Part shown: positions 16,701-63,560 of the stretch, one piece after another
How positions within the stretch are numbered: the first letter of the stretch is position 1
Layout of the letters: each line of letters starts with the position of its first letter
DNA from: Macrosoma leucophasiata
Lineage: Eukaryota > Arthropoda > Insecta > Lepidoptera > Hedylidae
Assembly: GCA_036365455.1 (NCBI GenBank)
Contig: JAWQUS010000025.1
Coordinates: 26,696,001-26,760,000 of the forward strand
DNA: 64,000 bases
Direction of reading: 5' to 3'
The notes under the pieces: generated by a model
The model's input: the letters and a program-made list of their open reading frames with translations, nothing else
Told to the model about the DNA's origin: nothing
Database searches by the model: none
Made by a program: the position numbers and the translations under genes

Positions 16701-19700
16701 ACGCGCAGGTGTTGGTGTCGACGGCGGGGAGTGGTACTCGTCGCTGGAGCTCGGCGCAACTGCGGTGGTCGACGTCGCTGCACTCGCGGAGGAGGCGGCG
16801 GCCGGCGGTTGCGAGGCGGGGCTCAGCGACGAGCCCGGTGCTGATGGGTGTGCTTCACGTCTGGCTTTCGCTCTTGTGATCATAATTCTTCATTATATTG
16901 CCATTTTACTGTTGTATATGTCGATGTTTATTGCTAATATTGTGACTTCTGTGACATTTCTTTCTTGTCATTTTATACGAAAATATCATTGTATTTGTTG
17001 TCGGTTTTAATGGAATAAATACCTTTAATTTTGGTGTGAACCTTTTCGCCGTTCCTTTTTATTGTGGTTTTGATTGCGGGTTGGGATGTTCGTCTGATTT
17101 TTATATTTTATTTGTGTAAATTTTCGGATCAAAGAATTATGTCAGTGTTCAAACGGAGGGTTGCCAGGCGTATTATTTATTATTATTATTATTATGTACG
17201 TACATTGTACATGTTATAATGTGACAGGCATGTACATCTTTCTCTTCTCTTACAGTGCAAGGGTTTTCTATATTTTTCTTTGGAGCACCATACATGTTTC
17301 ACAAATACTGATACACAAAGGTTTGGGTCTTATTGCCAATCAATTTGGTACCCTAAATTAAATCGCTAAAATGCACAGAGAATGAACGAGACAAATCGCT
17401 AATGATTATGTTCAGCTTGACCTACTTAATATTCTTTAGTCAGGGCGCCCGGACAAAAGTGTGAAGTTTTGTGTGGGCACCCTTAAGGTTCATAGTGGAA
17501 TAGCTAGCTGTACGACTCAATAAGTGTATGTGGTGATCAGGTGCTGGAGCTGAAGTCTGACTTCTCGACGGCGCGCTTGCATCGCGCCAATGTTTACCTG
17601 AAGCTCGCCCAGTATACAGATGCTAAGGAGGATTATCTTCAAGTTGTAAGTCTTTACTGCTTCTCATTTGGGTTACCTTTACAAAACAACTACTGGGAAC
17701 GAAGGTTTCTAATCGAACGCCTTTCCTAAAAATCATATGCATCTGCCTTCTCCGATTCGATGCTATGGTGGTAGCAAACAAGGATGCAGTTCACATTGAT
17801 GAGTGAATACTGAATCCTGTATACATATCGACACTGGAGGTCTAAATTGTAATTATTTTGCATCAATGGTGATTATTATGGAGCCATATTGTCGTCTGGT
17901 CTTGGCGAAATGCTTTCCCTCAACAGTACCTAATTGCATCAGAAAGAAAGACACAGTCAAGGAGCACTGCGCCGCGATCTATATTGCATATTATTGTCAT
18001 ATGCTACAATGTATATTTTAATTTGATAATGCCTCCTTCTCTGGACGGAAAAAGAGTGGTGTTATATAACCCATGATTTTGCGTCGGGGGTTGAAAATAC
18101 GTTCAGTATATTAACCCACCATTGTTTTCCCATTTATCAATGTCTCATTTCATAATATTTTCTCGTGACATAATCTTGTATTGAGTAATACATACATTGA
18201 CACACTCGCTCAATACATATTCATGTACTGACTGTGTTCCGTTGTACAAACATTTTCTCTGTTCGTTGAAGACAAACGCGAGTAATTTAAACAAAATAAG
18301 ATTGTTTCAAAAAAAAAAAACTCCCTTTCATTTCAACGGCTCTGTAATATCTGGCTCAGAGACATAACACCTTAGGCCTCAGGAGTGGTAATGTATCTGC
18401 ATTTTGATCTTTGTGTGGGTGTCTATAGGCTGCAGTCATCATTTAACTTCAATGTGAACTGCAAGCATGTTTACCTCTACCATTACATTAAAAAAAAAGT
18501 ATTTTATTAAGTATAAACACTTTGTTTATTTTCGAGGTTTTCTGGTAATGAAAAGTAAAAGGAAGCCCGGTAAAATATATAATTATAAGTCCAAGAGGCA
18601 GTATTTATTTATCAGCATTACGTCAATGAATTTTAGAGTATAATAATAATAAATAATGTTGTTTTCGTAGTATACGTTATACCGTATCACGAGGTTTATG
18701 AATATTTTCGTATAACTTTGAAACAAAGGACTAAAATATCTTGGTGATTAATCGCTATTACGGAAGTCAGAAACTGCGTTTGCTACACGGTATCGACTTA
18801 TGCTTAAAGTTAAACAATACATTGGTTTGTAATATTAAACATTGTATAGAATTCATGGTGATAAGAATATAGGTGCCTATGCATTAATGTATGTATTTGA
18901 TATAAACGATTCTTTATATGAAATGAAATTACATAGCCATTAGTCGATGATAAGTGAATAGAAACGTTTTGGTACACATCTATAAATGTAAGTGTATAAT
19001 TTTATTTTAGTGTAGATTTTTTGCCACTTTTGAGGCGTTAGATCTTTAGTCGTCGTCATTATTATATCAGAAATAGATAGATTTTGTCAGAAATCACCAA
19101 GACTGCACCGCACCATCCAACCAAAATATGAAGCTCTAAACACTACCAATTTAGAATCGGAAAGAAAAGGCGGCGGTGCCCACACCATCGCTCTCGCTGG
19201 AGCACTGGAGACATACTGGAGAGTAAAAAGCCTTCAAAGCTGCCACAATACACTCGATGAAATAATAAATGGTATCGTCGTCCAGACGTACACGGAGCCG
19301 CACAACGAGGAGGCGGTGCGCCTGTACCACGCGGTGGACGAGTACGCGCAGGAGCTGCGGCTGGCGGAGGCCTACTACCGCGGCGGGGACTTCCGCGCCG
19401 CCGCCGACCTGGCCACCGCGCTGCTGGACGTGTCCCCCTGGGCCGCGCACCTGCGGCAGCTGCGCGCCGAGTGCCACATCGCGCTGGTGAGTTCCTACAT
19501 CTCCGGCGCGCCGCCGCCGACCTGGCCACCGCGCTGCTGGACGTGTCCCCCTGGGCCGCGCACCTGCGGCAGCTGCGCGCCGAGTGCCACATCGCGCTGG
19601 TGAGTTCCTACATCTCCGGCGCGCCGCCGCCGACCTGGCCACCGCGCTGCTGGACGTGTCCCCCTGGGCCGCGCACCTGCGGCAGCTGCGCGCCGAGTGC

Positions 19701-22700
19701 CACATCGCGCTGGTGAGTTCCTACATCTCCGGCGCGCCGCCGCCGACCTGGCCACCGCGCTGCTGGACGTGTCCCCCTGGGCCGCGCACCTGCGGCAGCT
19801 GCGCGCCGAGTGCCACATCGCGCTGGTGAGTTCCTACATCTCCGGCGCGCCGCCGCCGACCTGGCCACCGCGCTGCTGGACGTGTCCCCCTGGGCCGCGC
19901 ACCTGCGGCAGCTGCGCGCCGAGTGCCACATCGCGCTGGTGAGTTCCTACATCTCCGGCGCGCCGCCGCCGACCTGGCCACCGCGCTGCTGGACGTGTCC
20001 CCCTGGGCCGCGCACCTGCGGCAGCTGCGCGCCGAGTGCCACATCGCGCTGGTGAGTTCCTACATCTCCGGCGCGCCGCCGCCGACCTGGCCACCGCGCT
20101 GCTGGACGTGTCCCCCTGGGCCGCGCACCTGCGGCAGCTGCGCGCCGAGTGCCACATCGCGCTGGTGAGTTCCTACATCTCCGGCGCGCCGCCGCCGACC
20201 TGGCCACCGCGCTGCTGGACGTGTCCCCCTGGGCCGCGCACCTGCGGCAGCTGCGCGCCGAGTGCCACATCGCGCTGGTGAGTTCCTACATCTCCGGCGC
20301 GCCGCCGCCGACCTGGCCACCGCGCTGCTGGACGTGTCCCCCTGGGCCGCGCACCTGCGGCAGCTGCGCGCCGAGTGCCACATCGCGCTGGTGAGTTCCT
20401 ACATCTCTGGCGCGCCGCCGCCGACCTGGCCACCGCGCTGCTGGACGTGTCCCCCTGGGCCGCGCACCTGCGGCAGCTGCGCGCCGAGTGCCACATCGCG
20501 CTGGTGAGTTCCTACATCTCTGGCGCGCCGCCGCCGACCTGGCCACCGCGCTGCTGGACGTGTCCCCCTGGGCCGCGCACCTGCGGCAGCTGCGCGCCGA
20601 GTGCCACATCGCGCTGGTGAGTTCCTACATCTCCGGCGCGCCGCCGCCGACCTGGCCACCGCGCTGCTGGACGTGTCCCCCTGGGCCGCGCACCTGCGGC
20701 AGCTGCGCGCCGAGTGCCACATCGCGCTGGTGAGTTCCTACGTCTCTGGCGTGCCATTCCACCTGTTACCGCCGTACCGGCCGCCGAGATGTCTCCGATT
20801 ATTGGTCGTCCGACGATCGCTCGGTATCTGCCCCCAGAATGTTGATCTACTACTTAGTGGCAGTGCCGACGTTAGGTTAGGTTAGGAGGGAGCGCAGAGG
20901 GGAGGGGGGGTCGACGTCCCAGGGCGCCAAAGTTCAGGAGGCGATCGGTGAGGTGAGCTATAAAAGTGAAGGAAAATGGACGGTTATTATTCTGTCTCTG
21001 ATGGGACCACTATACTATCCTGGATGTGTCTCTCTGGTCCGCGCAGTTCAGGGATCTGCGAGCAGGTGTTACATTGTGCTGGTGAGTTATTACATCTTTG
21101 TCGTCCTTTTTGACCCATAATTATCTTTCTAGCCATAAGATCTTTATTAGTAAATGATATATCTACAACAATCAATCATCGAACGATTGTCTGAATCTTT
21201 ACTATTCAGTTGACAATCCTCATAACCCAAACGCCAGTTTTCGAAGTATGCGCCCTGGTCCCTGTCGTTATTCGGTGAGCGTATGTGCCATATTATGTTG
21301 GTATGGTATTTAAGCTATGGGGGACTATCGCAGCGCTTCAAGAAGTGCTCCACTTAAAGATGGTCTCCCATGTTTCTCCCTACGAAGGATACTATATTTT
21401 TAGCAGTTCCTTAAGTGATGAGATTGCGACGAGGCGTGTTGACCGAGCGCGGTTGTTGCAGGACGACCTGTTCTCGGCCGTGTCGGACATCCGCTCGGTG
21501 AACCGGCTGCAGCAGGACTCCACGGACGGCTACCACCGCCTCGCCACCCTCCTCTACCAGCTCGGACACGTCAGCGATTCCCTCAAGGTTCGTTTTTATT
21601 TCGTTTTTCATTATTATGCACCTGATTCTATCTGTAATTAGTGCTCAAACACTGATATCGTTAAGGACTCAGGTCACAGATTTTGTCTCCTTAACAATTC
21701 TTAACTTCTTTTCTGTTCAAATGAAATCGTCTATTTCAAAATTGGTTTCGAACTCTTTCAAAATTATTATTCACTCCAGATAGTTTCAATACAAAACTAC
21801 CTAGAGTGAATAACTGATAAAAGTAATTAAATATGTATAAATTATAGTCAATATAAAAAAACATTTAACAAGAATATGATCATTCTTAAATTGTTCAATT
21901 TCTTAGCATAGAAGAAAAGAAAAAAAAAATCGTCATAATTATAGTAATTCTTTTAGCAGAGTTCCAAGCGCAGTCACAGCTGAGATGAACCTTGCTACAG
22001 AACAAACTAGGTGTGGTGTCATCATTCTTACCTTCACTGTTATCAGATTAATTATTTTTACGAGTCACCCTCGCTCTCGTACCGGACCACTCGCTGCTTA
22101 TTAACAATATTTGATTAAAAATTGACCCTCAGGAAATCCGAGAGTGCCTCAAACTGGACCCGGAGCACAAGAAATGTTTTCCCTTCTACAAGAAGGTGAA
22201 GAAGGTGGACAAGCTCCTGCTGGAGTGCGAGGAGAAGAGCGAGGCGCGGGACTTCGCGGGCTGTATCGAGAGCGCCGAGCGGGTGCTGAGGGCGGAGGAC
22301 GAGGTGACGCTAGTGGTGTTCGAGGGCAAGAAGTGGCTGTGTAGCTGTTCCGCTAAGGTAGGCATATTTAAAACGAATAAAATAACAATATATTTTGAGA
22401 AAAAAAAATTGTTTCCGTTATTGAATTAACTAGCGACCAGCCCCAGCGTCGCACGGGTAGCATTTATTATGTTGTGAGAGAAATAAAGTGGAAATTGATG
22501 AGAACTGGCAAAGAGCTTTGAGATTAAAAAAAATAAAAAAAATTGAGGAAGGTACAAAAGTCTAGAAGCCCCTTAGTTTTAATTCTATTCATGTGTGACA
22601 TTCTTGAGAACATACAAGATGTGTTGAAACGATGGAGCTAGATGGGAAAATATAGGCGATACGAAGTTTGAAATGTGATAAGGCTGCAGGTATTGATCAG

Positions 22701-25700
22701 GTTTCTGCCGAAAATATCTATACTAATATTATAAAGCTGAAGAGTTTGTTTGTTTGTTTGTTTGTTTGAACGCGCTAATCTCAGAAACTACTGGTCCGTT
22801 TTGAAAAATTCTTTCAGTGTTAGACAGTCCATTTATCGAGGAAGGCTTCAGGCTATATATCATCACGCTAATACTAATAGGAGAGGAGCACTAAAGAAGA
22901 ATGTTTCTAAATCGGGGGATTTTTTTTGAGATCTTCCACTGCGTGCGCTGCGTAAACGGTAAAAGTTTCACAAAAATCATGTAATACAGGTATTTTTCCC
23001 TTCAAAAGTTCTAAAAAAAAATCCGCGACATCATATGTCTATCTTTTAACTTTAGTTCACTATACGGTTTTTATACTAACCAAAGTTGCTCCAAACGAAT
23101 GCAGTATTTGCGAAGGTGTTTATAAAAACATGATATTATTAATCCTTATAGAAATAAATACGCTATTTATCACAAGTATTTCATTTAAAACAAAATTGCC
23201 CTTTACTTCATTCGATTCAAATCAATATCTTGGGAGATATCGCAGTTTTAAATAGTCCGTATACATCAAACCTTTGACACATTATTTCATTGTGAGGCAA
23301 TACGAAGTTTGCGGGGACAGCTAGTCAAATATATAATATGATTTGTAATTGAGGAGATATCATATACGTATAATAATAATAAAAGTGGACCCGAAATACT
23401 TCCCTGGGGCACACCTAATTCATTTATTTTATAGCTTGAATTATTCGTTTTTAGGACATGTTTTTCATCTATATTCCTTAACTGCACGTATTGTTTACGT
23501 CCAGTCAAGTAACTATTTAGCCAATCTAATGCAGGACCTCTTATGCCATATCTTTGACACATCTTGTTTCAAAAGCAGTATTTTGTGGTTAACAAAGTCA
23601 AAAGCGTTGCTCATGTCATGGAATACAACTGAAACTGGTATGCGTTTATCAACGGGATCAATAACATTATTTATTAAATTAAAAGCGGCTAAAGACGTGG
23701 ATTAGTTTTTTTGAAAATCCTATTGGTTTTTTTGTATGACTTCATTTTTGTTGAAAAAATTTATTAACCGGCTACGCATAACTTTTTCGATTATTTTAGC
23801 AAATGTGGGTATCAATGTGATTGGTCACATTCACATTTGTTGCCCTTTTTATGCAATGGTTTTACAACTGGAATTTTGGATTTCGGAGTTAATGCGCTCA
23901 TTAAGCGCAGACCGCTCGAGGCGGTCGGGCGCTGGTTGGGTGCCTTGCTGGTCGGACCTTTATCTTCATCATATCAGCCAGAAAAATGTCAACTGCTGGA
24001 CGAAAGCCTCTCCGATAGGCGATTATGGCATAAGATTGATATGCCATAATCACCACGCTCGGCATGCGGATTGGCGATTGCAGGGGCGGTAGTTTTATCG
24101 CAGGATGCTGCCGTGCGTAGCGTCATTGCACCACTACCTCCCCATCGGAACGGCTGGACTGCCATCGTTCGGGCGACCTGGAAGAATTCGCTTCCAGTAG
24201 AAGATTTTTTTTTCCGCTAGTGGGCGGCGGGGACGTCACCTCCCGACGCCAGATTACTCTTCATTGTAATGACTTATACCGTAGCTGCGGCCTATAACGT
24301 ATATCGAGTGATCGTGTGACAGGACGAGCAGTACACGGAGGCGCTGACACACTGCGCGGCGGCGCTGGCGCTGCGGAGGGACGCGCGCCTGCTGTGTGAG
24401 AGGGGAGACGCGCTGCTGGGGCTGGACATGTTCGACGACGGTCAGTGGCTCTCTCTCTCCCCCCCCCCTCTCTCACCACACACACTGGCCTGCGGAGGGA
24501 CGCGCGCCTGCTGTGTGAGAGGGGAGACGCGCTGCTGGGGCTGGACATGTTCGACGACGGTCAGTGGCTCTCTCTCTCCCCCCCCCCTCTCTCACCACAC
24601 ACACTGGCCTGCGGAGGGACGCGCGCCTGCTGTGTGAGAGGGGAGACGCGCTGCTGGGGCTGGACATGTTCGACGACGGTCAGTGGCTCTCTCTCTCCCC
24701 CCCCCCTCTCTCACCACACACACTGGCCTGCGGAGGGACGCGCGCCTGCTGTGTGAGAGGGGAGACGCGCTGCTGGGGCTGGACATGTTCGACGACGGTC
24801 AGTGGCTCTCTCTCTCCCCCCCCCCCTCTCTCACCACACACACTGGCCTGCGGAGGGACGCGCGCCTGCTGTGTGAGAGGGGAGACGCGCTGCTGGGGCT
24901 GGACATGTTCGACGACGGTCAGTGGCTCTCTCTCCCCCCCCCCCCCTCTCTCACCACACACACTGGCCTGCGGAGGGACGCGCGCCTGCTGTGTGAGAGG
25001 GGAGACGCGCTGCTGGGGCTGGACATGTTCGACGACGGTCAGTGGCTCTCTCTCCCCCCCCCCCCGCTCTCTCACCACACACACTGGCCTGCGGAGGGAC
25101 GCGCGCCTGCTGTGTGAGAGGGGAGACGCGCTGCTGGGGCTGGACATGTTCGACGACGGTCAGTGGCTCTCTCTCTCCCCCCCCCCCTCTCTCACCACAC
25201 ACACAAGCCTGCGGAGGGACGCGCGCCTGCTGTGTGAGAGGGGAGACGCGCTGCTGGGGCTGGACATGTTCGACGACGGTCAGTGGCTCTCTCTCTCTCC
25301 CCCCCCCCCTCTCTCACCACACACACTGGCCTGCGGAGGGACGCGCGCCTGCTGTGTGAGAGGGGAGACGCGCTGCTGGGGCTGGACATGTTCGACGACG
25401 GTCAGTGGCTCTCTCTCTCTCCCCCCCCCCCCCCTCTCTCACCACACACACTGGCCTGCGGAGGGACGCGCGCCTGCTGTGTGAGAGGGGAGACGCGCTG
25501 CTGGAGCTGGACATGTTCGACGACGGTCAGTGGCTCTCTCTCTCTCCCCCCCCCCCTCTCTCTCTCTCACCACACACACTGGCCTGCGGAGGGACGCGCG
25601 CCTGCTGTGTGAGAGGGGAGACGCGCTGCTGGGGCTGGACATGTTCGACGACGGTCAGTGGCTCTTTCTCTCCCCCCCCCCCCCCCTCTCTCACCACACA

Positions 25701-28400: not shown

Positions 28401-28439
<39 letters not shown>

Positions 28440-37035: not shown

Positions 37036-37352
37036 TTAAGACTCGTCATCAACCTGCAGCAATTTGGGCTTCCTCGTGTTATCTAAGAGCTTGCGCGCGG
37101 CGCGCTCTATCTCGTTGCTCAGCTTGCTCTTGTCCTCCTCCAGCTGGCAGATGTACCGGTGTCGCAGCGCACAGTCCTGTCCCCTGAACACGTAATCGTT
37201 TATAGCGGGGTCGTGGACCAAGGCCAAGCAGCGACCTTCGCCCACGATGCTGGAGGTGGCGTTGGAGGAGTTGTTGGTTTCGACCGGCTTGGCCGAGTGC
37301 GACCAGATCCACAGCAGGCCGGGGTTCAGGCCGCCGGTCCAGAAGTCGCTAC
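37036..37352 (-). CDS. Lectin exon 5 (second half of CTLD, C-terminus)
   Basis: The acceptor TTCCAG is followed by GT AGC GAC TTC TGG; the stop TAA is at 37038-37036. It encodes GSDFWTGGLNPGLLWIWSHS, then GEGRCLALVHDP and the DCALRHRYICQ end of the domain, followed by a charged tail. Confidence 0.9.
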
Positions 37353-47530: not shown

Positions 47531-47610
47531 TAAAATGAGGAAGTGGTTAAAAAGTTAATGGTTTGTTTTTATATTATTTCGCGTTAACACATGCTTGTGA
47601 AATATATTTT

Positions 47611-48496: not shown

Positions 48497-48801
48497 TAAG
48501 GCGGCCAACTGTCCCAGATTCTGCGGGACCGTCCCGTACTGCTGGATGTAATCCCGCTTTGCAAGAATTCATAAAATAGTCCCGCATAACGTTGGATGTG
48601 TCCCGCATGTTCCCCATTCGGTGCATTGACGTACCACGTATTTTAGAAATATGTAAATGACTTCAGTACTTATAAAGATTTGTGTTTTATATTATTTTGG
48701 TTAGTGCATTTATACTGACATAAGTTCATACTTCGCATTCACCATAGCCTATCTATCTACAAAAAGTCCCGCATGCTATTTTCAGTAAGTTGGCCGCCTT
48801 A
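48497..48801. mobile_element. hAT-like MITE, 305 bp
   Basis: The ends TAAGGCGGCCAACT and AGTTGGCCGCCTTA are perfect 14-bp inverted repeats. Target-site copies CAGATATG (48489-48496) and CGGATATG (48802-48809) differ at one base. The interior repeats GTCCCGCAT-like motifs. Confidence 0.8.
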
Positions 48802-50000: not shown

Positions 50001-50029
50001 CTCATTTAATCTGTGGACAGTGGGCTCGT

Positions 50030-50100
50030 CCCGCATGTTCGCGTGTCCCGCGTGTCCTGCGTGTCCCGCGTGTCCCGCGTGTCCCGCGTGGCCGGTCTGC
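50030..50100 (+). repeat. 9-bp minisatellite (CGTGTCCCG)n
   Basis: Six to seven imperfect copies lie just 3' of the last cadherin exon (minus-strand gene), probably in or beyond its 3' UTR. The open frame across it is not credible coding. Confidence 0.75.
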
Positions 50101-50271
50101 GGGGAGTTCCCGTGTCCCGTGGGTCAGAAGCGGTCGGTTAATTCGCTAGTGTTCGTCCCGCGGTGCGGTATGTGCGGTGGTCAGCCGGAGAAGTTTGCAG
50201 TGAAATCCCGCGTGTCACGGTGCGGGATGCGGGATGCGGACGTGCGGGATGCGGTGCGGCGGCGGTGGCGG

Positions 50272-50343
50272 TCAGAAGTAGACGGTGAGGTTCATGTGGT
50301 CGCCGACGGCGGGGTTGGTCGCCTCCGCCACGCTCTCCCCGCC
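50272..50343 (-). CDS. Cadherin last exon
   Basis: The acceptor GTGTGCAG precedes GGC GGG GAG AGC; TGA is at 50274-50272. It encodes GGESVAEATNPAVGDHMNLT then VYF. Its phase matches the previous exon. Confidence 0.8.
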   Translation of the reverse strand, partial: GGESVAEATNPAVGDHMNLTVYF

Positions 50344-53300: not shown

Positions 53301-56300
53301 ATCTAATCGAATAACGGCCGAAATCATACAACTAATGGATCTACGGGAGCAAACACAATACACAAAATATATGAGTGAGTGAGTGTCTGACGTAAATAGC
53401 CTCGAAACTGGGCAAAATTATCCTGCCGCCGCACAAAAAGGCCCACTTCTAAATGAAACGATTGCAGAACTTATATCACACGTCAACAAAGTGCTCCTGC
53501 ATTTAATTAAAAACTGTAAAACAGCTCCTTTGTGTACTGAAAAACCACAAGAGCAAGCCGGCTACGTCAAGGAAAAAATAAACTCAGAAACAAAATTCTA
53601 AATATTCAGCAACTGACAGAAATGTCCCACGAATTAGAATTCAACCCTCCTGTCGTTTTGTGTTTTATTGACTACAGTAAAGCCTTCGACTGCGTGAACT
53701 GGTCAGTTCTGTGGAAATTCATAAAGAACTTGTAGTACCTACCTACTTTATCTAGTATTACTGATTCAGGCGCTATATCAGCACAATCAAAATACTGTGA
53801 AAGTCGATAGGGCAACATCAAAACCCTTCAAATTTGAAAAAGATTTGTTAGACAAGGTTGCATTCTCTCACCCGTTCTATTCAACGTTTACCGTGAACGT
53901 GGACAGACAAACTTTTGAAAATTGTTTTTTTTGTTATGTCACTGCAGTTGGCAGCATGATTACTAATCTCCGTTACGCCGATGATAAAACGCTCTTAACG
54001 AAAGTGAATAAATCCAAAATCTCCTTGACATAAGGCATTAAAATCAACTATTTCAAAACTAGAATCATGCTAGTAAATCGCACCAATTCACTTATAATCA
54101 CTGAAACATTACCCGTCGAAATGGTAGAAGATTTCATTTTTCTGGGCACCACCCTCAGCAACATAGGTTCTTGATACAAGAAAATTAAGCGACTTATAGT
54201 TATGGCTGAAAGCGCAATGTCCCAGCTTCAACGAATATGGGAAGACCGCAACATATAACACAGAATAAAAAATAAAGTCCCTGGTCCTAGTTTTTCCATC
54301 TTTCACTACGCCTCGGAAACTTGGACATTAAAAAAAAGATCCGGACGAAATGAGAACCTCCTCCTTTTTTCGATGTCGGTAAAAAAGCAGGCTGTACGAT
54401 TTCTATATATCGCACAATACGTGCAGCTCCCGCGGGGTCCCGCGGGGCCGCCATTCCATCAACTTCATTTTATCGTATTTTTGTAAAACTATTTTGTGTG
54501 CTCCAATAAACCAACTACAAGAAACAAGTATTTCAAATTCCTTTATCTCACTTAACAATTAAAGAGTAGGGGTACGCACCCTACACAGGCCGATCGCGTT
54601 CGTATCGATGCTTAGTGTTGGCAAAAAATGCTTCCATTTTTTATTTCGTATTAACAAATCTATCATACGTAAACTGAAGATCAAAACCTGGTTTTCTAGC
54701 ACCTTTCTACGACCTGTTTTGGAGTTCTTTGAAGACATTGTCCACAAAGATGGACGCAACCTCGAGCAGCTGACGATTGCTGACGATTACTGGCGAGGTC
54801 GATGGCGACCGTGAGGTTGCAGCCCTAACGTTGTGCAAAGGTGGTTTGACCAAATTCGTGCTACGCTGAACATCAAGCTGCACAATGCTCTCCATGTCGC
54901 TAAGGACAAGCACAAATGATAAATATCATTTTATAAGAATACTTTTTTCACGATTTTAATGACCTCCGTACGGGTCTTTCAGGTTTCTCGAAATACATTT
55001 CGGAACCGTCACCATAAAGCAAACATGACAACAGACCGACATGTGCGTACCTGCGGGAATGCAAGTGGTCGCTCATCAGGGCGGCGGCCGCGGCCTCCGT
55101 GGCCGTCAGTGCCGGTCCCGTGCCCCCCGCGCCCCCCGCGCCCCCCGCCGTGCCGTTGGCGGGGGGCGTGGCGTGAGTGGAGGGGGCGGGGGAGGGCAGC
55201 GTGGGGGGCGCGGGCGCCACTTTGCTCTTGTTGGGGAACCGCTGCGACTGTCTGCTGGCTGAGCCTGGAATGTAACCGTTATGTTATTATCAGATCGATA
55301 TTAGACGCGACCGAAAGGTACGAAACATCCACTACATAGGGCGCCACGTAATATAACACCAAGGAAATACAAATATTGAAAGAAAGAAAGAAAATAATAC
55401 ATGAAACACATGAAACGCACACACGAAGTTTTCAAACGAGTTCCCAGACTACCGTTAGAGATAGACGTTGAAGGAGTTTTGGAAAGCTAAACTCACATCT
55501 AGCGTGAATAACTCGTACTAAAATCCACGAAAGAGTGTCGAAAACGAATTGAAAGACACGGAAGAGCCAACTGGTTTCTTTTACTGATTAGATTTTCACC
55601 ATTGGTCCAATGGTGAAAATCAAATTTGCGGTTGATCCGATTATGTTTACATTTTTTTTTAGGTCTGAAGGTTAAGGAAAGACAAGCAAACGGGCCACCT
55701 GATGGAAAGTGGTCACCGTCACCTATGAACATTAGAATTTGAACCACTACGGGAGTCGCCAACGAGCTGCCGGCCCAAAAACATTGTACGACGGGAAGGC
55801 GCTGAGTTGTAGACTCACATCTGGCGGGCTGCAGCGTGGAGGTGCGCAGGTCCAGGCTGCTGGTGGAGGCCGCCAGGATGCTGCTGGCGCCCGCCGACAC
55901 CGACACCAGCGAGCCGCCCCCCCCGGCCCCCCCAGCCCCACCGGCGAGGGCGGAGGAGGGGGGCTTCACGCCGGGGATGGCGCTGCCCGCTGTGTTTTTT
56001 GCGCGACGACGGCGACTGTAATGTAAGATAAAAGCTTACGATTTGATGATAAACATGAAGAAATATAGTTGAAAAAATATACTTTGAAAATAACATTTTT
56101 ACAGGAGTAATTGGACTTTTTCGTTTCATACAGTACTGGGGGGCGCCGGCCAGCGCGCTGCCCCCCGCCCCCCGCCCCCCTAGAGGACACGTATATACAG
56201 TACTCACGCGCGGTGTAGGTGCAGGTGCAGCAGGAGGGCGGCCAGCAGCAGCGCCAGCAGGGCCAGCGCCGCGGCGAACAGCGCCAGCAGGGGGGCGCCG

Positions 56301-59300
56301 GCCAGCGCGCTGCCCCCCTCGGCCGCCTCCGCCGCCCGCAGCCTCACCACCACCGGCACCGACGTCTGCATATACATTATATCAATTATTAGCTGATTAA
56401 ACCTCTACAGAAACGACAGAGTAAGATCCATCGAATAGGGTATGTTTAATTCATGCCACCTCCATATAAAAATGAGTATAAAACAAAACAATTATAAATC
56501 CGTAGCGTGAGTGCCGTTGTACACACTCAATATGCATCATAATCACCCAATTTTTTTTTTATATATGTTTAATTTATACAAGTGTCTGTTCCGGTGTGGG
56601 GATCGAGCCCGCGACTCTCGGTCTATGGACAGACATCGTCGAACTAACTAGGTCGTCAAAAGTCTCATCTGTTTAAGGCAATAAGGCAGATTGTTTCAAC
56701 AGAAAACATGATAAATGATACTTAAGTGAGCAAAGCGAGCATAAAGTAGCGTGTACAGGTACAGTGAGACAGCGAGACAGCGAGACAGCGAGACAGATAC
56801 GGATGATGAAGTCTAGACGCGGAGGGCGCGGAGGGCGCGGACCTGGCGGGGCGGCGCGCCGGAGTCGACGGCGGTGGCCACGAGGTGCACGAGCGACGAG
56901 TTGAGGCCGCGCAGCGCCTCCGAGCGCAGGAACATCTCGCCCTCCGGACTCACGTAGAACATCCTGCCGGCAACCGCTGCCTTTACTTGGCCGTTTGTAC
57001 TCGTTACGTAGTAGTTGGGGAGCCCGACGGGACTCTAACGCGTCGGATTGAGACTCCATGCACAGTACTGAGTGTCTCCAACGATTCTGAGCTGTTTATA
57101 ATGCCGCACAAAATTCTGACGATTTGGATACCTACGAGAAGCAGCTTTTAAAAATATTGAACGGAAAACCTACGAAAACGGCTGCATATCGACAGCTGAG
57201 ACTTGTTGCAGATACTTAACGTGGTGCAAGGTATCCCTCATATAGAAAAATGAATTAACAAATGGGCATACCTACATGTACCTAAAAATGCCCATTCCTT
57301 AGATGGACGAAGCCCTGCAACGTCCCGAGACGTGTTTGGTGAATTTCCTTTATTCTATTTTATTGCGATTACAAGAATCGCTTATGATAGGTCACAAAAT
57401 GTATACCTAATTACTATTTATTTTACACGTCATATCATCAGTATATCAGTAGAATGTCTCACTTTCTCTTTTACAAACAGATAACAAAGAGTTTAGAAGA
57501 AGAAAAAGAGACATTCCTTCGAAGCAGGCAGTTAAGACAGCTTAAACTTCAAGAGGCTGAAAGACTACAAGATAGCAATCCTTATGTTATATAAAATATG
57601 ATCCTATTATGATATGAATATTGTTGTACTTTACAATAACACATGCGAGTGAACTTTATAAATTAAATAAAAAACGACAGAAAGAAAAATTTGACTTCGA
57701 CTAAGCTTTAGGTAGCTTAGTGGTAAAGCGGCTGGACTGGTTATCCTGAGGTCGCAGGTTCGATTCCTGCCCGAAGTCAAATTTTCTTGCTGTTTTTTCT
57801 TTAATCAATAATGTTTTCAGTTACACCCTAGGAATGTGGGAGTATGTCCGATTAAATGGGATAATAAACAACAATCAGGTAAAAACTTTTGTTTTGAACT
57901 TTGTGAATGAAAGAACGAAAGATGTAAATAAGTAAATATTGAAAAATAAAAACAGTAGGTAGGTACACAATCTGCTATATTGTGGTTTTATCAGCAAATT
58001 ATTTAATGCAACCTCAATTAAATAGGTAATTAAATTGCAATATTATCGATGTTTTGACCTACCATATTTATAATTTACAATCGATCATATCACCTTAAGT
58101 ACTTTATTTGATTATATATTTTATTAAATAATTTATGAGTTGCGACCTTTTTATGTCATGAAGTAGCAAACAAGCATATCTACAGTTCACATCGATGGTA
58201 AGTAGGTAATACTGTTGTCTATACATCTACATGAAACCAGACATTTCAATGTTGCGTTTGCATTCTTAAAAAGTCTTCCGGGTTTATGCGACATGCAACG
58301 CAACCCCAAAAATATCGGACCTTTCCTATCTGTATTAGATAAACCCTTCCAATCTACTGTATCGCGTCTATGAATCTTAAGAGACATTCGTACATACCCA
58401 GCGTCCGCTCCCCGTAGCGTGATCGTGACGGTATCGGACGTATCCCCGTCGTGAACGTCCAGCTTGCCCACGGCCAGCAGCCCGTCATGCCCACTCCCAC
58501 TCCCACTCCCACTCCCACTGCCCGCCCCGTCGCTCCCCCGCCCAGCGCTGGGCTCGTCCACGCGGAACTCGTACTGCGGGTAGCGGAACCGCGGCTCCCA
58601 CTCGTTCACGTTTCCCACCGTTATGTTCACCGTTGCTGTGTCGTTCTGGAATAAACGGTTTATAAATGGCTGGCGTCGGGACGTGACGACCCTAGCGGAA
58701 AACACCCAGCGGATCCAATTTTTCTTCTAGGTACTGGAAGTTAATTCTTACACTAGTGCAGTCAGTCAACCGAACAATAGCGGTCAAACCATTCCAATGG
58801 GGCGGTAGTAGGTGCAACAACGCAAGATGGGCAACGACGTCCTGCGATAAAACTACCGCCACTGCGATCGCCTATCCGCATGCCAAGCGTGGAGATTATG
58901 GAATATAACCCTTAATAGGGTAGGCTTTGGTTCAGCTGTGGACATTTTTCGGCTGTTAAGATGATTATAATGAAACTCCGAGGCCGCGAGGATGACACTG
59001 GAAAACCCCCAGGAAATGGAATGATCCTAAGATTAGCTCCGGGAATAAAATATAATACACGGTTATCTCTGATAGCTTCCAACCCGGGGATCGAACCCAA
59101 GACCCCAGCGTAGCAGTAGCTGCTACTAAACGAAAGGATAAGAAAAATCAAAGACGTAAACGATGACAAAAGCTATTCAGTAAGCGATCCAGATGAAGGA
59201 ATCAGAATGAAACCTATCGGTCAAAAAAGATAGAAACAAAAGCTACCTACTATCGATGAGCTTCGGTTCACATGCATTTTTTTTGTCAAAATGAGGTTAT

Positions 59301-62300
59301 AAAATTGGTAGGTACGTCGTCCGCTTGATACTATTGAGGTTCATTTTATCCCAAAAAATTACAAAATTGAGGATATACTCACGCGCGCGCTCTACAACTT
59401 TATTATCGGCATGCGACCATATGTATAAAGTATTATTTCGTACAAAAACTCGGGATACCAGGCGACCGTACCGGAGTAAACAACTCCGTTATGGTCGCCT
59501 GGTTAAATCAGACTTACTTTAATATAATTAACAACCATTTAAAAAAAGGTAATCGATATTTAAGATTTATTAACATTTCATCAACCTTAAGAAAACTTAT
59601 ACACCAATTAAATGAAATACACATAAATGTTAGCTTAGTTGCCAGTCTTCTAAATATCATTTCTGAAAGAACTTGAACACCATTGTGGTAAAACACTGCA
59701 GTGCACTATAAGTAATCACTTTTGGTTATTATTTTGTATACCTCGCAGATATAAGTAGGTGGACTGAGCAAACAGGCATAAAAATATTAAAAAAAAGTTA
59801 CATTACAAAAAAAATATTTTAGTACAAATCAATTCAAGGTTTTCGAGACATGAGACTCTTGAACATCTCCCTGAACTGCAGGAGGCCCGGTTCGTTCTTC
59901 CTTTTGTACCAGTCCTCCGTCTTCAGAATATTGAACCACGCTATCAACTTGTCGTATTTAGCGGCGATGGGCACCAGCTCGTTGAGGGAGGACACTGTGG
60001 CCACACACGATATGTCAGCCAGCGTCAGACTAGGGCCGGCCACGTATTTAGTCTTCCCCAAGTATTTCTCCAGGATTCCGTAGCACTCCTCTATATCTGC
60101 GCGATGTTTATCACTGATTTTAGGCTCGCCGACGAACAACGGTCTGAACGCTGCCACCATACGAGGGAACAGGAAAGTGGAGTCGAAGCAGAACCTCTCG
60201 TGAACCACGGTCCGTGTCTTCAAGTCTTCCGGGTACAGGGCGGACTCGTCGCCGTACTTCGTGATCAAGTACACGATGATCGCGTGGCTGTGGGTCACGA
60301 TCGTGTCTCCGTCTTCCAACACCGGCACGGTGCGTTGGGGGTTCTTCTCCAGATATTCCGGAGTCTTGTTCTCCCCGGCGAACACCTTGATCTCCTCGGT
60401 TTCGAAGTCCAGTCGGAGAATGTCGGCCACCATGAGGACGGAGCGCGTGGGCGAGCCCAGTTCCAGCGTGTAGAGCAACATGTCCCCGTCCGGTGCGGTC
60501 TGAAGTCTCGAGGGCACTGGCGTCGCCTTGCGCTATCGTGATATTTTTATCGACTGATAAGTGATGCGATCGCTAAATTCGTTTTAACGCTTAAGTACAA
60601 TGTATATAATTCGTTATTCTTTCTTAAATATATTTACCTGTTGGATATGGATTTAATTAGCTATTAAATGAATAATATTTCAACTGAAATATTATTTATT
60701 TAATATGCATACATTTACTTGTTAATTAACTTTAAAGTTTATTTTTGAACTCGCGAAAAATAAAAGATTATAATATGACAAGGTCGTCTAGGTCAAGATT
60801 AACGTAAGATAGAGGATGTCGATATTTGACCCAAACTGTTGTTGGAAGTTTAACTTACAGTTATATGTAGATTCACGTTAAAGGATCACACAGTGCCCAC
60901 GACTTCTTCCGCGTAGATACCGTACAATAATTTTGTTAAACTCTACGCGGATAGAGTCGCGGGCACAGCTAGTCTAAATTAAATACGTTTATGTAAACCG
61001 ACCGCATTCAACACCGTTTAAAAGTTTTGAAGCAGTACTCGAAGTAATTTTAAATCGACGATAACTTCTTTTTCTCTTAAGCGATTTCGACGGCAAAATT
61101 ACAACCGTCCAGTGCTAAACGTTCGAGCCGAGCCGCCGACGGAGGGATAGAGCGAAAAAAAATAAGAATTTCTGGTCGAAGGAATCTCGTTGTGGAAATT
61201 GAAAGGAAAGGAAGTCCAAAAACAGCAGGCGCGGCACGTACGTGGTGCCCGTCGGTGACCATGACGCGGTAGTGGTAGTGCGGCGTGTCCTCGTAGTCCA
61301 GCGCGGCCCGCAGCAGCAGCTCGCCGCGCGCGTTGATCGCGAACTTGTCCAGGAAGCCGCGCTCCGACACGTAGAACTGCAGCGGCCGCGTCTGTGGCAC
61401 AACAGGGCACGCTCTTTCGATACAGTTTTCTTGGAGAAAGTCAACGACTATGATGAACAGCTTTACAGTTTAGAGCTTTAACACTCTGTCCTCGGGCGCC
61501 ACCACATTGTAGTGGGTGCGCGAGAGGAAGCGAGGGAGTGGGAGAGAGAGAGAGAGAGCGTGACGTGACCTGTGCGGCGTGCGGCGTGGTGTGCAGGGTG
61601 GCCAGCAGCGTGCCGGCGGGCGCGTCCTCGGGCGCCACCACACTGTAGTGGGTGCGCGAGAGGAAGCGAGGGAGTGGGAGAGAGAGAGAGAGAGCGTGAC
61701 GTGACCTGTGCGGCGTGCGGCGTGGTGTGCAGGGTGGCCAGCAGCGTGCCGGCGGGCGCGTCCTCGGGCGCCACCACACTGTAGTGGGTGCGCGAGAGGA
61801 AGCGAGGGAGTGAGAGAGAGAGAGAGAGCGTGACGTGACCTGTGCGGCGTGCGGCGTGGTGTGCAGGGTGGCCAGCAGCGTGCCGGCGGGCGCGTCCTCG
61901 GGCGCCACCACACTGTAGTGGGTGCGCGAGAGGAAGCGAGGGAGTGGGAGAGAGAGAGAGAGAGAGAGAGAGAGCGTGACGTGACCTGTGCGGCGTGCGG
62001 CGTGGTGTGCAGGGTGGCCAGCAGCGTGCCGGCGGGCGCGTCCTCGGGCGCCACCACACTGTAGTGGGTGCGCGAGAGGAAGCGAGGGAGTGGGAGAGAG
62101 AGAGAGAGAGCGTGACGTGACCTGTGCGGCGTGCGGCGTGGTGTGCAGGGTGGCCAGCAGCGTGCCGGCGGGCGCGTCCTCGGGCGCCACCACACTGTAG
62201 TGGGTGCGCGAGAGGAAGCGAGGGAGTGAGAGAGAGAGAGAGAGCGTGACGTGACCTGTGCGGCGTGCGGCGTGGTGTGCAGGGTGGCCAGCAGCGTGCC

Positions 62301-62361
62301 GGCGGGCGCGTCCTCGGGCGCCACCACACTGTAGTGGGTGCGCGAGAGGAAGCGAGGGAGT

Positions 62362-62394
<33 letters not shown>

Positions 62395-63043
62395 TGACGT
62401 GACCTGTGCGGCGTGCGGCGTGGTGTGCAGGGTGGCCAGCAGCGTGCCGGCGGGCGCGTCCTCGGGCGCCACCACACTGTAGTGGGTGCGCGAGAGGAAG
62501 CGAGGGAGTGGGAGAGAGAGAGAGAGAGCGTGACGTGACCTGTGCGGCGTGCGGCGTGGTGTGCAGGGTGGCCAGCAGCGTGCCGGCGGGCGCGTCCTCG
62601 GGCGCCACCACACTGTAGTGGGTGCGCGAGAGGAAGCGAGGGAGTGAGAGAGAGAGAGAGAGCGTGACGTGACCTGTGCGGCGTGCGGCGTGGTGTGCAG
62701 GGTGGCCAGCAGCGTGCCGGCGGGCGCGTCCTCGGGCGCCACCACACTGTAGTGGGTGCGCGAGAGGAAGCGAGGGAGTGGGAGAGAGAGAGAGAGAGCG
62801 TGACGTGACCTGTGCGGCGTGCGGCGTGGTGTGCAGGGTGGCCAGCAGCGTGCCGGCGGGCGCGTCCTCGGGCGCCACCACACTGTAGTGGGTGCGCGAG
62901 AGGAAGCGAGGGAGTGAGAGAGAGAGAGAGAGCGTGACGTGACCTGTGCGGCGTGCGGCGTGGTGTGCAGGGTGGCCAGCAGCGTGCCGGCGGGCGCGTC
63001 CTCGGGCGCCACCACACTGTAGTGGGTGCGCGAGAGGAAGCGA

Positions 63044-63076
<33 letters not shown>

Positions 63077-63327
63077 CGTGACGTGACCTGTGCGGCGTGC
63101 GGCGTGGTGTGCAGGGTGGCCAGCAGCGTGCCGGCGGGCGCGTCCTCGGGCGCCACCACACTGTAGTGGGTGCGCGAGAGGAAGCGAGGGAGTGAGAGAG
63201 AGAGAGAGAGCGTGACGTGACCTGTGCGGCGTGCGGCGTGGTGTGCAGGGTGGCCAGCAGCGTGCCGGCGGGCGCGTCCTCGGGCGCCACCACACTGTAG
63301 TGGGTGCGCGAGAGGAAGCGAGGGAGT

Positions 63328-63362
<35 letters not shown>

Positions 63363-63560
63363 TGACGTGACCTGTGCGGCGTGCGGCGTGGTGTGCAGGG
63401 TGGCCAGCAGCGTGCCGGCGGGCGCGTCCTCGGGCGCCACCACACTGTAGTGGGTGCGTGAGAACCGCAGCGGCTGGTCCCCGCCGCCCCCCCCGCCCCC
63501 GCCGCCCGTCACGCCAACGGTGGCGAGCGCGTAGCGGTCTGGGTTGTCCACTTGCGTCGC
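50272..63560 (-). CDS. Transmembrane cadherin, 3' nine exons (gene continues past right edge)
   Basis: Calcium-dependent adhesion-type receptor at the plasma membrane. Exons 63560-63372, 61391-61242, 58645-58398, 56963-56843, 56365-56208, 56015-55819, 55264-55051, 53093-53000 and 50343-50272 join in frame. Visible order: cadherin repeat strands (HYSVVAPEDAPAGTLL, GELLLRAALDYEDTPHYHYR, NVNEWEPRF, a degenerate DxNDxxPxF), a final repeat (FRVDEPSAG, MFLRSEALRGLNSSLVHLVA), one transmembrane helix (APLLALFAAALALLALLLAA), a basic RRRRAK stop-transfer, then a ~190-residue low-complexity cytoplasmic tail ending MNLTVYF. No catenin-binding region was recognised, so it is not a classical cadherin. A Cad86C/Cad87A-type insect cadherin is possible but not shown. 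Two exons are followed by arrays of their own 3' ends. A GST gene lies inside one intron. Confidence 0.88.
50413..50561. mobile_element. Fold-back MITE, PIF/Harbinger-like
   Basis: The arms cover nearly the whole 149 bp (GGTTCGGTCGCACCAAAC at left, GGCGCAACTGAACC at right; ATATCCTTCTCTAAC near the centre). It is flanked by TAA at 50410-50412 and 50562-50564, a 3-bp duplication typical of PIF/Harbinger. It lies in the last cadherin intron. Confidence 0.6.
50906..51435 (+). repeat. (GTGGT)n pentanucleotide tracts
   Basis: Two tracts (50906-51125 and 51190-51435) of GTGGT with rare GTAGT variants flank one 84-bp array unit. They are continuous with the array to the right, whose units each contain a short GTGGT run. 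Confidence 0.9.
51126..53010 (-). repeat. 84-bp minisatellite spanning a cadherin splice donor, ~20 copies
   Basis: On the minus strand each unit begins with the last ~10 exon bases CCACACGCAG and the donor GTGCGCC, then about 70 intron bases including CTCACCACACCACACC. The real exon (53093-53000) is the transcription-upstream copy. Units are nearly identical, with variant sublineages (GACAGG/GGCAGG, TGTGCG/TGTTCG) arranged in blocks. Because 84 = 3 x 28, several frames stay open for hundreds of codons on both strands; these are not genes. Confidence 0.92.
53000..53093 (-). CDS. Cadherin cytoplasmic exon
   Basis: The acceptor TGTGTAG precedes C GGC GTG GGG; the donor is CAG|GTGCGC at 52999. 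It encodes GVGRSGVAWPSATIPARVKK then LSWDDAAHHTQ. The phases match both neighbours. Confidence 0.82.
53240..54330 (+). pseudogene. LINE reverse-transcriptase remnant
   Basis: Plus-strand fragments in shifting frames: NRITAEIIQLMD-like (~53300), QAGYVKEKINSE (~53560), VVLCFIDYSKAFDCVNW (~53650) and ITNLRYADDKTLLTK (~53960). They follow the order of RT motifs, with stops and frameshifts between. The clade is not determined. It lies in a cadherin intron. Confidence 0.75.
54331..55050. other. Rest of this cadherin intron, nothing assigned
   Basis: A minor conserved-looking stretch at 54710-54910 (plus strand LEFFEDIVHKDGRNLEQL in one frame) is unidentified and may be a decayed transposon. Confidence 0.35.
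55051..55264 (-). CDS. Cadherin cytoplasmic exon (Pro/Gly/Ala-rich)
   Basis: The acceptor ATTCCAG is followed by GC TCA GCC AGC; the donor is CGCAG|GTACGC. It encodes SASRQSQRFPNKSKVAPAPP, then a Pro/Thr-rich stretch, then Gly/Ala repeats and MSDHLHSR. Confidence 0.83.
55660..55745 (+). repeat. Fragment of a dispersed repeat
   Basis: It contains CAAACGGGCCACCTGATGGA, then AAGTGGTCACCGTCACC and ATGAACATTAG, a motif common in lepidopteran dispersed repeats. It lies in the cadherin intron between the cytoplasmic exons. Confidence 0.45.
55819..56015 (-). CDS. Cadherin juxtamembrane exon
   Basis: The acceptor CATTACAG is followed by T CGC CGT CGT; the donor is AGAT|GTGAGT. It encodes RRRRAKNTAGSAIPGVKPPS, then a Gly-rich stretch and SSILAASTSSLDLRTSTLQP. 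The basic start is the cytoplasmic anchor. Confidence 0.85.
56138..56166 (-). repeat. 29-bp copy of transmembrane-exon sequence in the next intron
   Basis: It is identical to exon bases 56290-56318 (GGGGGCGCCGGCCAGCGCGC and onward). It is bounded by CAGTACT at 56131-56137, which repeats CAGTACT at 56198-56204 next to the donor. It looks like an incomplete tandem duplication across the exon-intron border. Confidence 0.85.
56208..56365 (-). CDS. Cadherin transmembrane exon
   Basis: The acceptor TCTGCAG... (TATGCAG|ACG in essence at 56366) leads to ACG TCG GTG CCG; the donor is CGC|GTGAGT at 56207. It encodes TSVPVVVRLRAAEAAEGGSA, then the 23-residue hydrophobic helix and LLHLHLHRA. It is split in phase 2. 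Confidence 0.86.
56843..56963 (-). CDS. Cadherin membrane-proximal extracellular exon
   Basis: The acceptor CCGGCAG is followed by G ATG TTC TAC; the donor is CAG|GTCCGC. It encodes MFYVSPEGEMFLRSEALRGL and LVATAVDSGAPPRQ. The A-D-x-G-x-P motif of cadherin repeats is visible as AVDSGAPP. Confidence 0.88.
57480..57595 (+). other. Orphan exon-like reading frame (unidentified)
   Basis: After a good acceptor (CTCTTTTACAAACAG) the plus strand is open for about 37 codons, ITKSLEEEKETFLRSRQLRQ, then LKLQEAERLQDSNPYVI and TAA. It is charged and likely helical, and looks like a last exon or the 3' end of a retrocopied transcript. No upstream plus-strand exon was found. It lies in a cadherin intron. 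Confidence 0.35.
57663..57805 (+). repeat. tRNA-like-core fold-back element, copy with best core
   Basis: The core has A-box-like TAGCTTAGTGGTAAAGCGG (D stem GCTT/AAGC), a perfect T stem GCAGG/CCTGC around TTCGATT, and acceptor halves GACTTC/GAAGTC separated from the core on the 5' side by about ten extra bases. Outer A/T-rich arms are inverted. The left flank ATAACACATGCGAGTGAAC matches the 11640 copy inverted. It is not a canonical tRNA. Confidence 0.6.
58398..58645 (-). CDS. Cadherin extracellular exon with Ser-Gly microsatellite
   Basis: The acceptor ATTCCAG precedes AAC GAC ACA GCA; the donor is GCTGG|GTATGT. It encodes NDTATVNITVGNVNEWEPRF, then FRVDEP and a (Gly-Ser)n run from a GGGAGT hexanucleotide repeat (about 58493-58520), then LLAVGKLDVHDGDTSDTVTI. 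Confidence 0.88.
58754..58975. repeat. Dispersed repeat family C copy
   Basis: It contains GTCAACCGAACAATAGCGGT, CAAACCATTCCAAT and CCTGCGATAAAAC, collinear with 46470-46640. It lies in a cadherin intron. Confidence 0.55.
59457..59503. repeat. 21-bp inverted repeat (hairpin)
   Basis: Arms 59457-59477 and 59483-59503 have two mismatches and a 5-base loop (ACCAGGCGACCGTACCGGAG). The stem is short for a pre-miRNA. Confidence 0.6.
59834..60481 (-). CDS. Glutathione S-transferase, delta/epsilon-like, intronless
   Basis: Conjugates glutathione to electrophiles in the cytosol (detoxification). It has 215 residues, a normal length. The thioredoxin-fold N-domain has the catalytic-region Ser in LELGSPTRS and the glutathione-site NPQRTVPVLEDGDTIVTHSH; the alpha-helical C-domain has SLTLADISCVATVSSL. 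The start at 60481-60479 is the first ATG giving the family N-terminus (MLLYTLELGSP). Upstream codons are open without an ATG in that frame, and CTTCAG just upstream may be a 5' UTR acceptor. It lies wholly within a cadherin intron on the same strand. No poly(A) tail or flanking duplication marks it as a retrocopy. Confidence 0.93.
   Translation of the reverse strand: MLLYTLELGSPTRSVLMVADILRLDFETEEIKVFAGENKTPEYLEKNPQRTVPVLEDGDTIVTHSHAIIVYLITKYGDESALYPEDLKTRTVVHERFCFDSTFLFPRMVAAFRPLFVGEPKISDKHRADIEECYGILEKYLGKTKYVAGPSLTLADISCVATVSSLNELVPIAAKYDKLIAWFNILKTEDWYKRKNEPGLLQFREMFKSLMSRKP
60482..61241 (-). other. Upstream region of the GST gene within the cadherin intron
   Basis: It is AT-rich. Bases 60890-60975 end CGCGGGCACAGCTAGT and look like a Helitron 3' end. 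The GST promoter should lie here; no confident TATA or initiator is called. Confidence 0.4.
61242..61391 (-). CDS. Cadherin extracellular exon
   Basis: The acceptor TGCCACAG precedes ACG CGG CCG CTG; the donor is CAC|GTACGT. It has 50 codons, TRPLQFYVSERGFLDKFAIN, then GELLLRAALDYEDTPHYHYR and VTDGHH. The L-D-Y-E and V-x-D-G features are cadherin hallmarks. Confidence 0.9.
61487..63470 (-). repeat. ~139-bp minisatellite made from a cadherin exon 3' end plus splice donor, ~15 copies
   Basis: On the minus strand each unit runs from CGCACCCACTACAGTGTGG through GTGGCGCCCGAGGACGCG to GCCGCACAG, donor GTCACGTCACG, a (CT)n tract and CCTCGCTTCCTCTCG. The real exon (63560-63372) is the upstream copy. 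Unit lengths differ through (CT)n, and short/long variants alternate, suggesting a two-unit higher-order period. Each unit has a pyrimidine tract before CACTACAG, so it could in principle act as an exon of its own. Long frames across it are spurious. Confidence 0.94.
63372..63560 (-). CDS. Cadherin extracellular exon (first in window)
   Basis: The acceptor TTTTTGCAG precedes GCG ACG CAA GTG; the donor is CAG|GTCACG at 63371. It has 63 codons, ATQVDNPDRYALATVGVTGG, a Gly run, then HYSVVAPEDAPAGTLLATLH. The poly-Gly insertion between strands is unusual for the fold. Confidence 0.88.

What the first reader, a model, noticed from the sequence alone, without database searches (positions are those of the whole stretch)
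19394..63470. Donor-anchored minisatellites: four arrays in two unrelated genes each repeat an exon's 3' end plus its 5' splice site
DNAJC3 exons 5 and 8 (plus strand) and two cadherin exons (minus strand) are each followed by a tandem array whose unit is the exon's 3' end (10-93 bases), the GT donor and the start of the intron. Copy numbers are about 12, 33, 20 and 15. The genuine exon is always the transcription-upstream copy, and no array covers an acceptor or a mid-intron site. Recurrence in two genes, on both strands, suggests a shared process at GC-rich exon/intron borders (replication or R-loop slippage, or selection sparing copies beyond the donor). It yields dozens of duplicate donors per intron. 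I know of no named class for this.
Basis: seen in the sequence. Interest (0 to 1): 0.87.

Follow-up and report, generated by a model that had tools for sequence, protein, structure and literature searches.

The report
Repeated exon ends beyond splice donors
In this moth or butterfly genome the ends of several exons, together with their splice-out signal, have been copied over and over into the intron that follows, as has been described before in lancelets, where such repeats are called mirages.

Summary
Four tandem arrays (12, 33, 20 and 14 copies) each repeat an exon's 3' end, its donor and the start of the intron, in DNAJC3 (exons 5 and 8) and in a protocadherin-16/Cad96C-like cadherin. All four first-copy donors join in frame to the next exon, and orthologues run on across the junctions. 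A class name exists: lancelet 'mirages' are minisatellite-like duplications of exon/intron borders, found on either side of the exon. A sample chosen by kinesin homology, blind to repeats, shows the process beyond this window: 8 of 72 matched exon pieces carry copies on the donor side (three as arrays, five as decayed or short echoes), 1 of 72 on the acceptor side; a neighbouring unmatched exon carries one more array. GC-rich exons are favoured. The donor bias is suggestive (8:1, p=0.02) but weakens once the GC-richer 3' borders are allowed for. Best explanation: ordinary tandem duplication at exon borders, kept where it is silent because the first-transcribed donor stays correct, amplified in GC-rich DNA, then decaying in the intron. 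Splicing itself could not be tested.

The parts
19286..19486 (+). DNAJC3 exon 5, donor CTG|GTGAGT
   Evidence: In-frame exon chain; aligned to DNAJC3 of the PDB (2y4t)
19394..20755 (+). Array A1: 113-bp unit, 12 copies (93 bases exon + 20 intron), 12 of 12 donors intact
21020..21097 (+). Decayed lone copy of exon 5 end + donor, 76% identical, GTGAGT retained
   Evidence: Score 60 against a maximum of 22 in 200 shuffles
24323..24440 (+). DNAJC3 exon 8, donor GACG|GTCAGT; joins exon 9 as FDD-A-IQ where 2y4t reads YDEAIQ
24365..28413 (+). Array A2: 119-136 bp unit, 33 copies; units 12-21 and 22-31 share the same order of variants, a segmental duplication of about 1,242 bp
53000..53093 (-). Cadherin exon H, donor CACGCAG|GTGCGC
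   Evidence: Frame; orthologues over H|I (7 of 8 aligned)
51104..53011 (-). Array A3: 84-bp unit, 20 copies by donor count, 11 GT and 9 AT, ending in an ACCAC tract (to about 50906)
63372..63560 (-). Cadherin exon A, donor GCACAG|GTCACG
   Evidence: Frame; orthologues over A|B (8 of 8 aligned)
61488..63463 (-). Array A4: 134-150 bp unit, 14 full copies plus a truncated last one, (CT)n of variable length
56208..56365 (-). Cadherin exon E (hydrophobic, probably transmembrane), source of a remnant copy
56138..56166 (-). Exact 29-bp copy of an exon E segment in the intron after exon E; followed by the same AGTACTGTAT that follows the exon's donor
   Evidence: blastn self-comparison and printed sequence

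Best explanation
These are 'mirage'-type minisatellites. Tandem duplications with short or imperfect homology at their ends arise at exon borders in this genome. When the unit starts inside an exon and ends in the next intron, the original exon keeps its length and its donor, and every extra copy falls into the intron. The first donor is transcribed first and lies next to the exon, so it is probably the one used; the extra copies are then close to neutral. GC-rich units expand by unequal exchange or slippage and are homogenised; unused copies decay into lone echoes. Shown: the anatomy, intact reading frames, spread over other genes, the range from fresh to decayed, and the GC association. Inferred: which donor is used, near-neutrality, and selection as the cause of the donor bias.
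For: All four window donors join in frame and orthologues support the junctions. Kinesin sample: arrays at L030 (31 bp x 17.2), L036+L038 (92 bp x 12.8), L041 (124 bp x 2.5, 82%) and L046+L066 (143 bp x 11.4, to the edge of the stretch) are all donor-anchored; decayed or short donor-side copies at L030 (second exon), L031, L044, L062 and L065. 8 donor-side against 1 acceptor-side in 72 exon pieces (p=0.02). Pieces with copies are GC-richer (p=0.002). Turnover: the ten-unit duplication in A2, alternating 134/136 bp steps in part of A4, one-sided variant spread in A3. Nine A3 copies without GT argue against upkeep of the extra donors.
Against: No RNA evidence for donor choice. One acceptor-side copy exists (L042, 26 bp), and lancelet mirages include an acceptor type (PMC3087553). 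GC-rich windows lie about twice as often over exon 3' ends as over 5' ends even without the 8 pieces that bear copies, so part of the bias may be composition; with a 2:1 expectation 8:1 has p of about 0.14 (hand arithmetic). A looser scan of the window flagged weak matches on both sides alike.
Confidence: 0.58

Rival explanations
1. Composition alone: minisatellites form in GC-rich DNA, exons are the main GC-rich DNA here, arrays inside exons are purged, and the donor side wins only because 3' borders are GC-richer.
For: GC association; GC-rich windows over 3' ends exceed those over 5' ends by about 2:1 in the kinesin sample; GC-conditioned chance in the window rises to about 1e-3.
Against: In the window donors and acceptors are about equally likely to lie in a GC-rich unit, yet 5 of 15 donors and 0 of 17 acceptors bear copies (A3 by TRF). 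By exons rather than windows the kinesin difference is small: 12 against 9 at GC 0.60, 20 against 24 at 0.55. Copies also occur at pieces of GC 0.53 and 0.54.
Confidence: 0.2
2. Mutational bias at donors: transcription-linked breakage, R-loops, or CT- or C-rich tracts just after the donor start the duplications there.
For: A2 and A4 have CT or C tracts just after the donor and A3 an ACCAC-rich unit; L030 and L036 have C- or CT-rich stretches within about 20 bases of it.
Against: A1, L041, L046 and L065 have no such tract there.
Confidence: 0.13
3. Functional: the arrays supply many alternative donors or regulate splicing, as reported for the human IFI6 minisatellite.
For: IFI6 transcripts use downstream repeat units as donors (statement in PMC4526556); 12/12, 33/33 and 14/14 donors intact in A1, A2 and A4.
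Against: A3 lost GT in 9 of 20 copies; homogenised arrays keep motifs without selection; potential unit-exons in A2 and A4 (62 and 73 nt) would shift the frame.
Confidence: 0.05
4. Assembly artefact.
For: No reads were available; PMC3087553 notes that one lancelet mirage appears wrongly assembled in the draft.
Against: Ordered variants, a segmental duplication inside A2, decayed copies of several ages, and recurrence in DNAJC3, a cadherin and kinesin genes on five contigs.
Confidence: 0.03

Closest known systems
Lancelet (amphioxus) 'mirages': Adh3, globins BflGb6 and BflGb9, also TnC and PGBD5 (passages of PMC3087553 and PMC3902484 seen; Canestro 2002 seen only as cited)
   Same: Minisatellite-like tandem duplication of an exon/intron border, concerted evolution, genuine exon intact; reported not to disturb regular splicing
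   Different: Here in an insect; up to 33 copies against 3 and 6 in the BflGb6 haplotypes (copy number of Adh3 not seen); 8 of 72 exon pieces of one gene family; a lean to the donor side, whereas BflGb6 is acceptor-type
Human IFI6 (6-16, G1P3) donor minisatellite (Turri 1995, seen only as cited in PMC4526556)
   Same: Repeat units carry a splice donor at an exon end
   Different: One gene, with use of inner donors reported; whether inner donors are used here is unknown
Intron gain by tandem duplication of AG/GT sites (Rogers 1989; Gao and Lynch 2009; both seen only as cited in PMC3087553)
   Same: Tandem duplication that multiplies splice sites
   Different: Here the intron already exists; no new intron was shown
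Human internal tandem repeats in segmental duplications (passages of PMC2812944 seen)
   Same: Tandem repeats at an exon-intron boundary can alter gene structure
   Different: Recent human paralogues, half of the repeats coding; no donor polarity in the passages seen

Membership tests
Mirage (lancelet exon/intron-border minisatellite) | Tandem units spanning an exon/intron border | tested here: met
Mirage (lancelet exon/intron-border minisatellite) | Genuine exon and border remain intact at the edge of the array | tested here: met
   In-frame chains and orthologue-supported junctions for the four window arrays
Mirage (lancelet exon/intron-border minisatellite) | Concerted turnover of units | tested here: met
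   Segmental duplication, alternating steps and variant gradient, read from the copy lists
Mirage (lancelet exon/intron-border minisatellite) | Normal splicing in spite of duplicated sites | not testable with these tools
   No RNA data
Mirage (lancelet exon/intron-border minisatellite) | Length polymorphism and somatic instability | not testable with these tools
   One assembly, no reads or second haplotype
IFI6-type donor minisatellite | Inner repeat donors are used in mRNA | not testable with these tools
   No RNA data
Intron gain by tandem duplication | A new intron lies inside a formerly continuous exon | tested here: not met
   The four window arrays lie in introns bounded by genuine exons

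The most novel reading that the evidence does not exclude
In this lepidopteran the copying of exon 3' ends into the following intron is a frequent, ongoing and polarised genome-wide process (8 of 72 exon pieces in the sample). Co-transcriptional order protects the first donor and purges acceptor-side copies. Introns become archives of former exon sequence, and the coding exon, as a member of the array, evolves together with its intronic copies.
Probability: 0.35. Interest if true: 0.75.

Novelty: new member of a known kind. Interest (0 to 1): 0.56.

Why it matters
If general, it would show mirages to be a common way in which introns grow in some animals, provide many natural tests per genome of how a cell picks one donor among identical ones, and reveal coding segments that share a homogenising array with non-coding copies. 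The donor bias makes the 'first donor transcribed wins' idea directly testable from genome and long-read RNA data.

Tried and rejected
Rejected: exon duplication or mutually exclusive exons (the units start inside the exon and carry no genuine acceptor). Recursive splicing at the A3 CAG|GT units was considered and left as speculation. A reading of the 143-bp array at C15 (L034) as a mirage was dropped: it carries GTGAGT, but I recognised no exon beside it by eye. L057 and L021 hold similar GC-rich minisatellites that are not exon-derived. A search for tandem donor patterns over the whole genome (AGGTGAGT or AGGTAAGT twice, 85-115 bases apart) was sent many times and never answered. My notebook says 73 kinesin exons; the checked number is 72. 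Of the 76 rows, three matches spanning the whole domain in one stretch and one overlapping row were left out. Rows whose matched part lies in the intron and not in the exon (L055, one of L031) were dropped before the count; the stricter rule gives the same eight and one. A looser scan of the window with 15 plain shuffles per border flagged 9 of 17 3'-border queries and 7 of 17 5'-border queries; apart from the exon 5 donor (score 60) and exon E (59, whose copy lies downstream of the exon although the 5'-border query found it) all scores were 33 or less, and I set them aside as chance or low complexity.

Full report
WHAT IS THERE. The window is from a lepidopteran-like genome: of the 25 best relatives of its cadherin (50 found), 24 are named from moths or butterflies (order recalled from the names) and one has no name; the best is Galleria at 51% identity over the whole query. 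The assembly G000 holds 616 Mb in 61 contigs, and the window is C25:26696001-26760000. TRF confirms the four arrays. Copy by copy: A1 has 12 donors CTG|GTGAGT; A2 has 33 GTCAGT donors; A3 has 20 copies, 11 with CAG|GT and 9 with CAG|AT; A4 has 14 full copies with CAG|GTCACG. Exonic share of the units: 93, 76, 12 and 92 bases.

THE GENES ARE INTACT. DNAJC3 exons 4-11, spliced from the first-copy donors, form one open frame to a stop. The protein matches DNAJC3 of the PDB (2y4t, human by recall, whose query held exons 5, 7, 8, 10 and 11 only). The exon 8/9 junction reads FDD-A-IQ where 2y4t reads YDEAIQ; the exon 5/6 junction reads RAECHIAL-DDLF against RAECFIKEGEPR, without a gap by eye. Cadherin exons A-I likewise form one open frame to a stop after two acceptors were reset by frame. 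Of the 50 proteins found I aligned 8: all 8 cover the A|B junction and 7 of 8 the H|I junction, some with small gaps at the border. So all four arrays sit on genuine donors, and the first copy is the one that fits the protein. That the genuine exon comes first is a logical consequence of duplicating across a donor, not an extra regularity.

TURNOVER. In A2, units 12-21 and 22-31 show the same order of variants over 1,242 bp. Several steps of A4 alternate between 134 and 136 bp. A3 variants spread from one end. In A4 the 75 exon bases before the donor are the same in 14 of 14 copies, and A1 units match at 99%, so the coding segment is itself a member of a homogenised or recently expanded array. 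A lone 76% copy of exon 5's end with its donor lies at 21020-21097 (score 60 against a maximum of 22 in 200 shuffles). A 29-bp exact copy of part of cadherin exon E lies 152 bp downstream, followed by the same bases that follow the exon's donor. At E<=1e-4 within 1.5 kb, 4 of 17 exons have donor-side copies and 0 of 17 acceptor-side copies; A3, whose exon part is 12 bases, is not seen by that test and counts by TRF. In total 5 of 15 donors and 0 of 17 acceptors. A looser scan flagged weak matches on both sides, told in Tried and rejected.

CHANCE. Placing units of these sizes at random, the chance to span a mapped donor is 0.020-0.030 each, a product of about 4e-7. Restricted to placements of GC 0.60 or more it is 0.126-0.192 (about 7e-4), and at 0.65 or more 0.148-0.244 (about 1.7e-3) (unit GC of A1, A2 and A4 is 0.75, 0.69 and 0.71, that of A3 was not computed). 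Composition thus explains much of the striking look, but not all.

OUTSIDE THE WINDOW. To test generality I listed kinesin (PF00225) matches in the same assembly: 76 rows. I fetched all 72 distinct exon pieces, leaving out three full-domain matches and one overlapping row. The pieces are HMM matches; some run a little into introns (stops inside). 67 of 72 have at least 150 bases on the donor side and 68 of 72 on the acceptor side; the rest of the flank varies from 400 bases to whole introns. The choice was blind to repeats, but two stretches (L038, L066) were added afterwards to follow arrays already found. TRF arrays of period 25 or more and at least 2.5 copies in these 72.7 kb (length): four, all donor-anchored: L030 (31 bp x 17.2), L036+L038 (92 bp x 12.8, 99%), L041 (124 bp x 2.5, 82%), and L046+L066 (143 bp x 11.4, running to the edge, on an unmatched neighbour exon). 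A 15-bp array in L057 falls below the period limit. Blast self-comparison at E<=1e-4 within 1.5 kb gives 8 pieces with donor-side and 1 with acceptor-side copies (L042, 26 bp), with the low-complexity filter on or off; with at least 20 exonic bases required it is 8:0. Below threshold: one donor-side (L031, E=0.001) and one acceptor-side match (L061, E=0.003). Alignments show L031 and L065 as exon end + donor + intron at about 75% identity; L030 (second exon), L044 and L062 are shorter exon pieces in the downstream intron. In 20 random 10-kb stretches, 6 of 20 held an array of period 25 or more with at least 3 copies; exons there were not annotated.

HOW STRONG IS THE DONOR BIAS. 8:1 gives p=0.02 one-sided, 9:1 with L046 0.011, 13:1 with the window 0.0009; the window is the discovery set and so not independent. 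Pieces with copies are GC-richer (8 against 64, p=0.002). GC-rich 100-bp windows cover exon 3' ends about twice as often as 5' ends even without the 8 pieces (359 against 174 at GC 0.60), though by exons it is 12 against 9, and 20 against 24 at GC 0.55. With a 2:1 expectation 8:1 is not significant (about 0.14) and 13:1 is about 0.03 (hand arithmetic). I call the bias suggestive.

MECHANISM. Some junctions show short or imperfect homology between exon and intron ends, for example GTACC in L046 (by eye, not tested against chance), as for ordinary tandem duplication. A duplication over a donor leaves the exon and its first donor in place and sends the copies into the intron. A duplication over an acceptor puts decoy acceptors upstream, which are transcribed first. 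This order argument is my inference. Loss of GT in 9 of 20 A3 copies speaks against upkeep of the extra donors. Units of A2 and A4 hold a pyrimidine tract and an AG before the exonic part; used as exons (62 and 73 nt) they would shift the frame.

WHAT IS KNOWN. The class has a name. [quoted passage not shown] PMC3902484 (passage seen) adds TnC and PGBD5. Human IFI6 has a donor minisatellite (as cited in PMC4526556). In the library searched, only these two lancelet papers hold the phrases of the 2002 mirage title or the words mirage, minisatellite and amphioxus together. The listings showed, by title and start of abstract, no insect case; the library lacks most subscription papers, so this does not prove absence.

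VERDICT. Real, present well beyond the window in the one gene family tested, and of a known kind, in a new phylum and with larger arrays than those seen in the lancelet passages, with a donor lean that deserves a proper whole-genome test.

Noticed in passing
59837-60482 (-): Glutathione S-transferase gene in one open frame (GST_N and GST_C Pfam hits), same strand, nested in the cadherin intron between exons B and C.
   Followed up: partly
37039-38344 (-): Two GC-rich exons of what looks like a C-type-lectin-like gene; only a weak Pfam match (UL45, E=5e-4, below its cut-off).
   Followed up: no
51104-53011, + strand: 15 of the 20 A3 copies listed (counted by eye) carry AGGTAAGT on the opposite strand, so the array also repeats a consensus-like antisense donor.
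   Followed up: no
L021 1-316; L057 624-944: Similar GC-rich minisatellites with a 15-bp theme (GTCCCGACGCCCAGC) at two unlinked places, not exon-derived.
   Followed up: partly
L034 537-1628: 143-bp x 7.6 array with GTGAGT; its flank resembles, by eye, sequence in the window near 63.9 kb, perhaps a dispersed repeat.
   Followed up: partly
L042 187-303 and 757-782: The single acceptor-side copy: AATTTCAG|GCAAYAGTAA repeated 479 bp upstream of the exon.
   Followed up: yes
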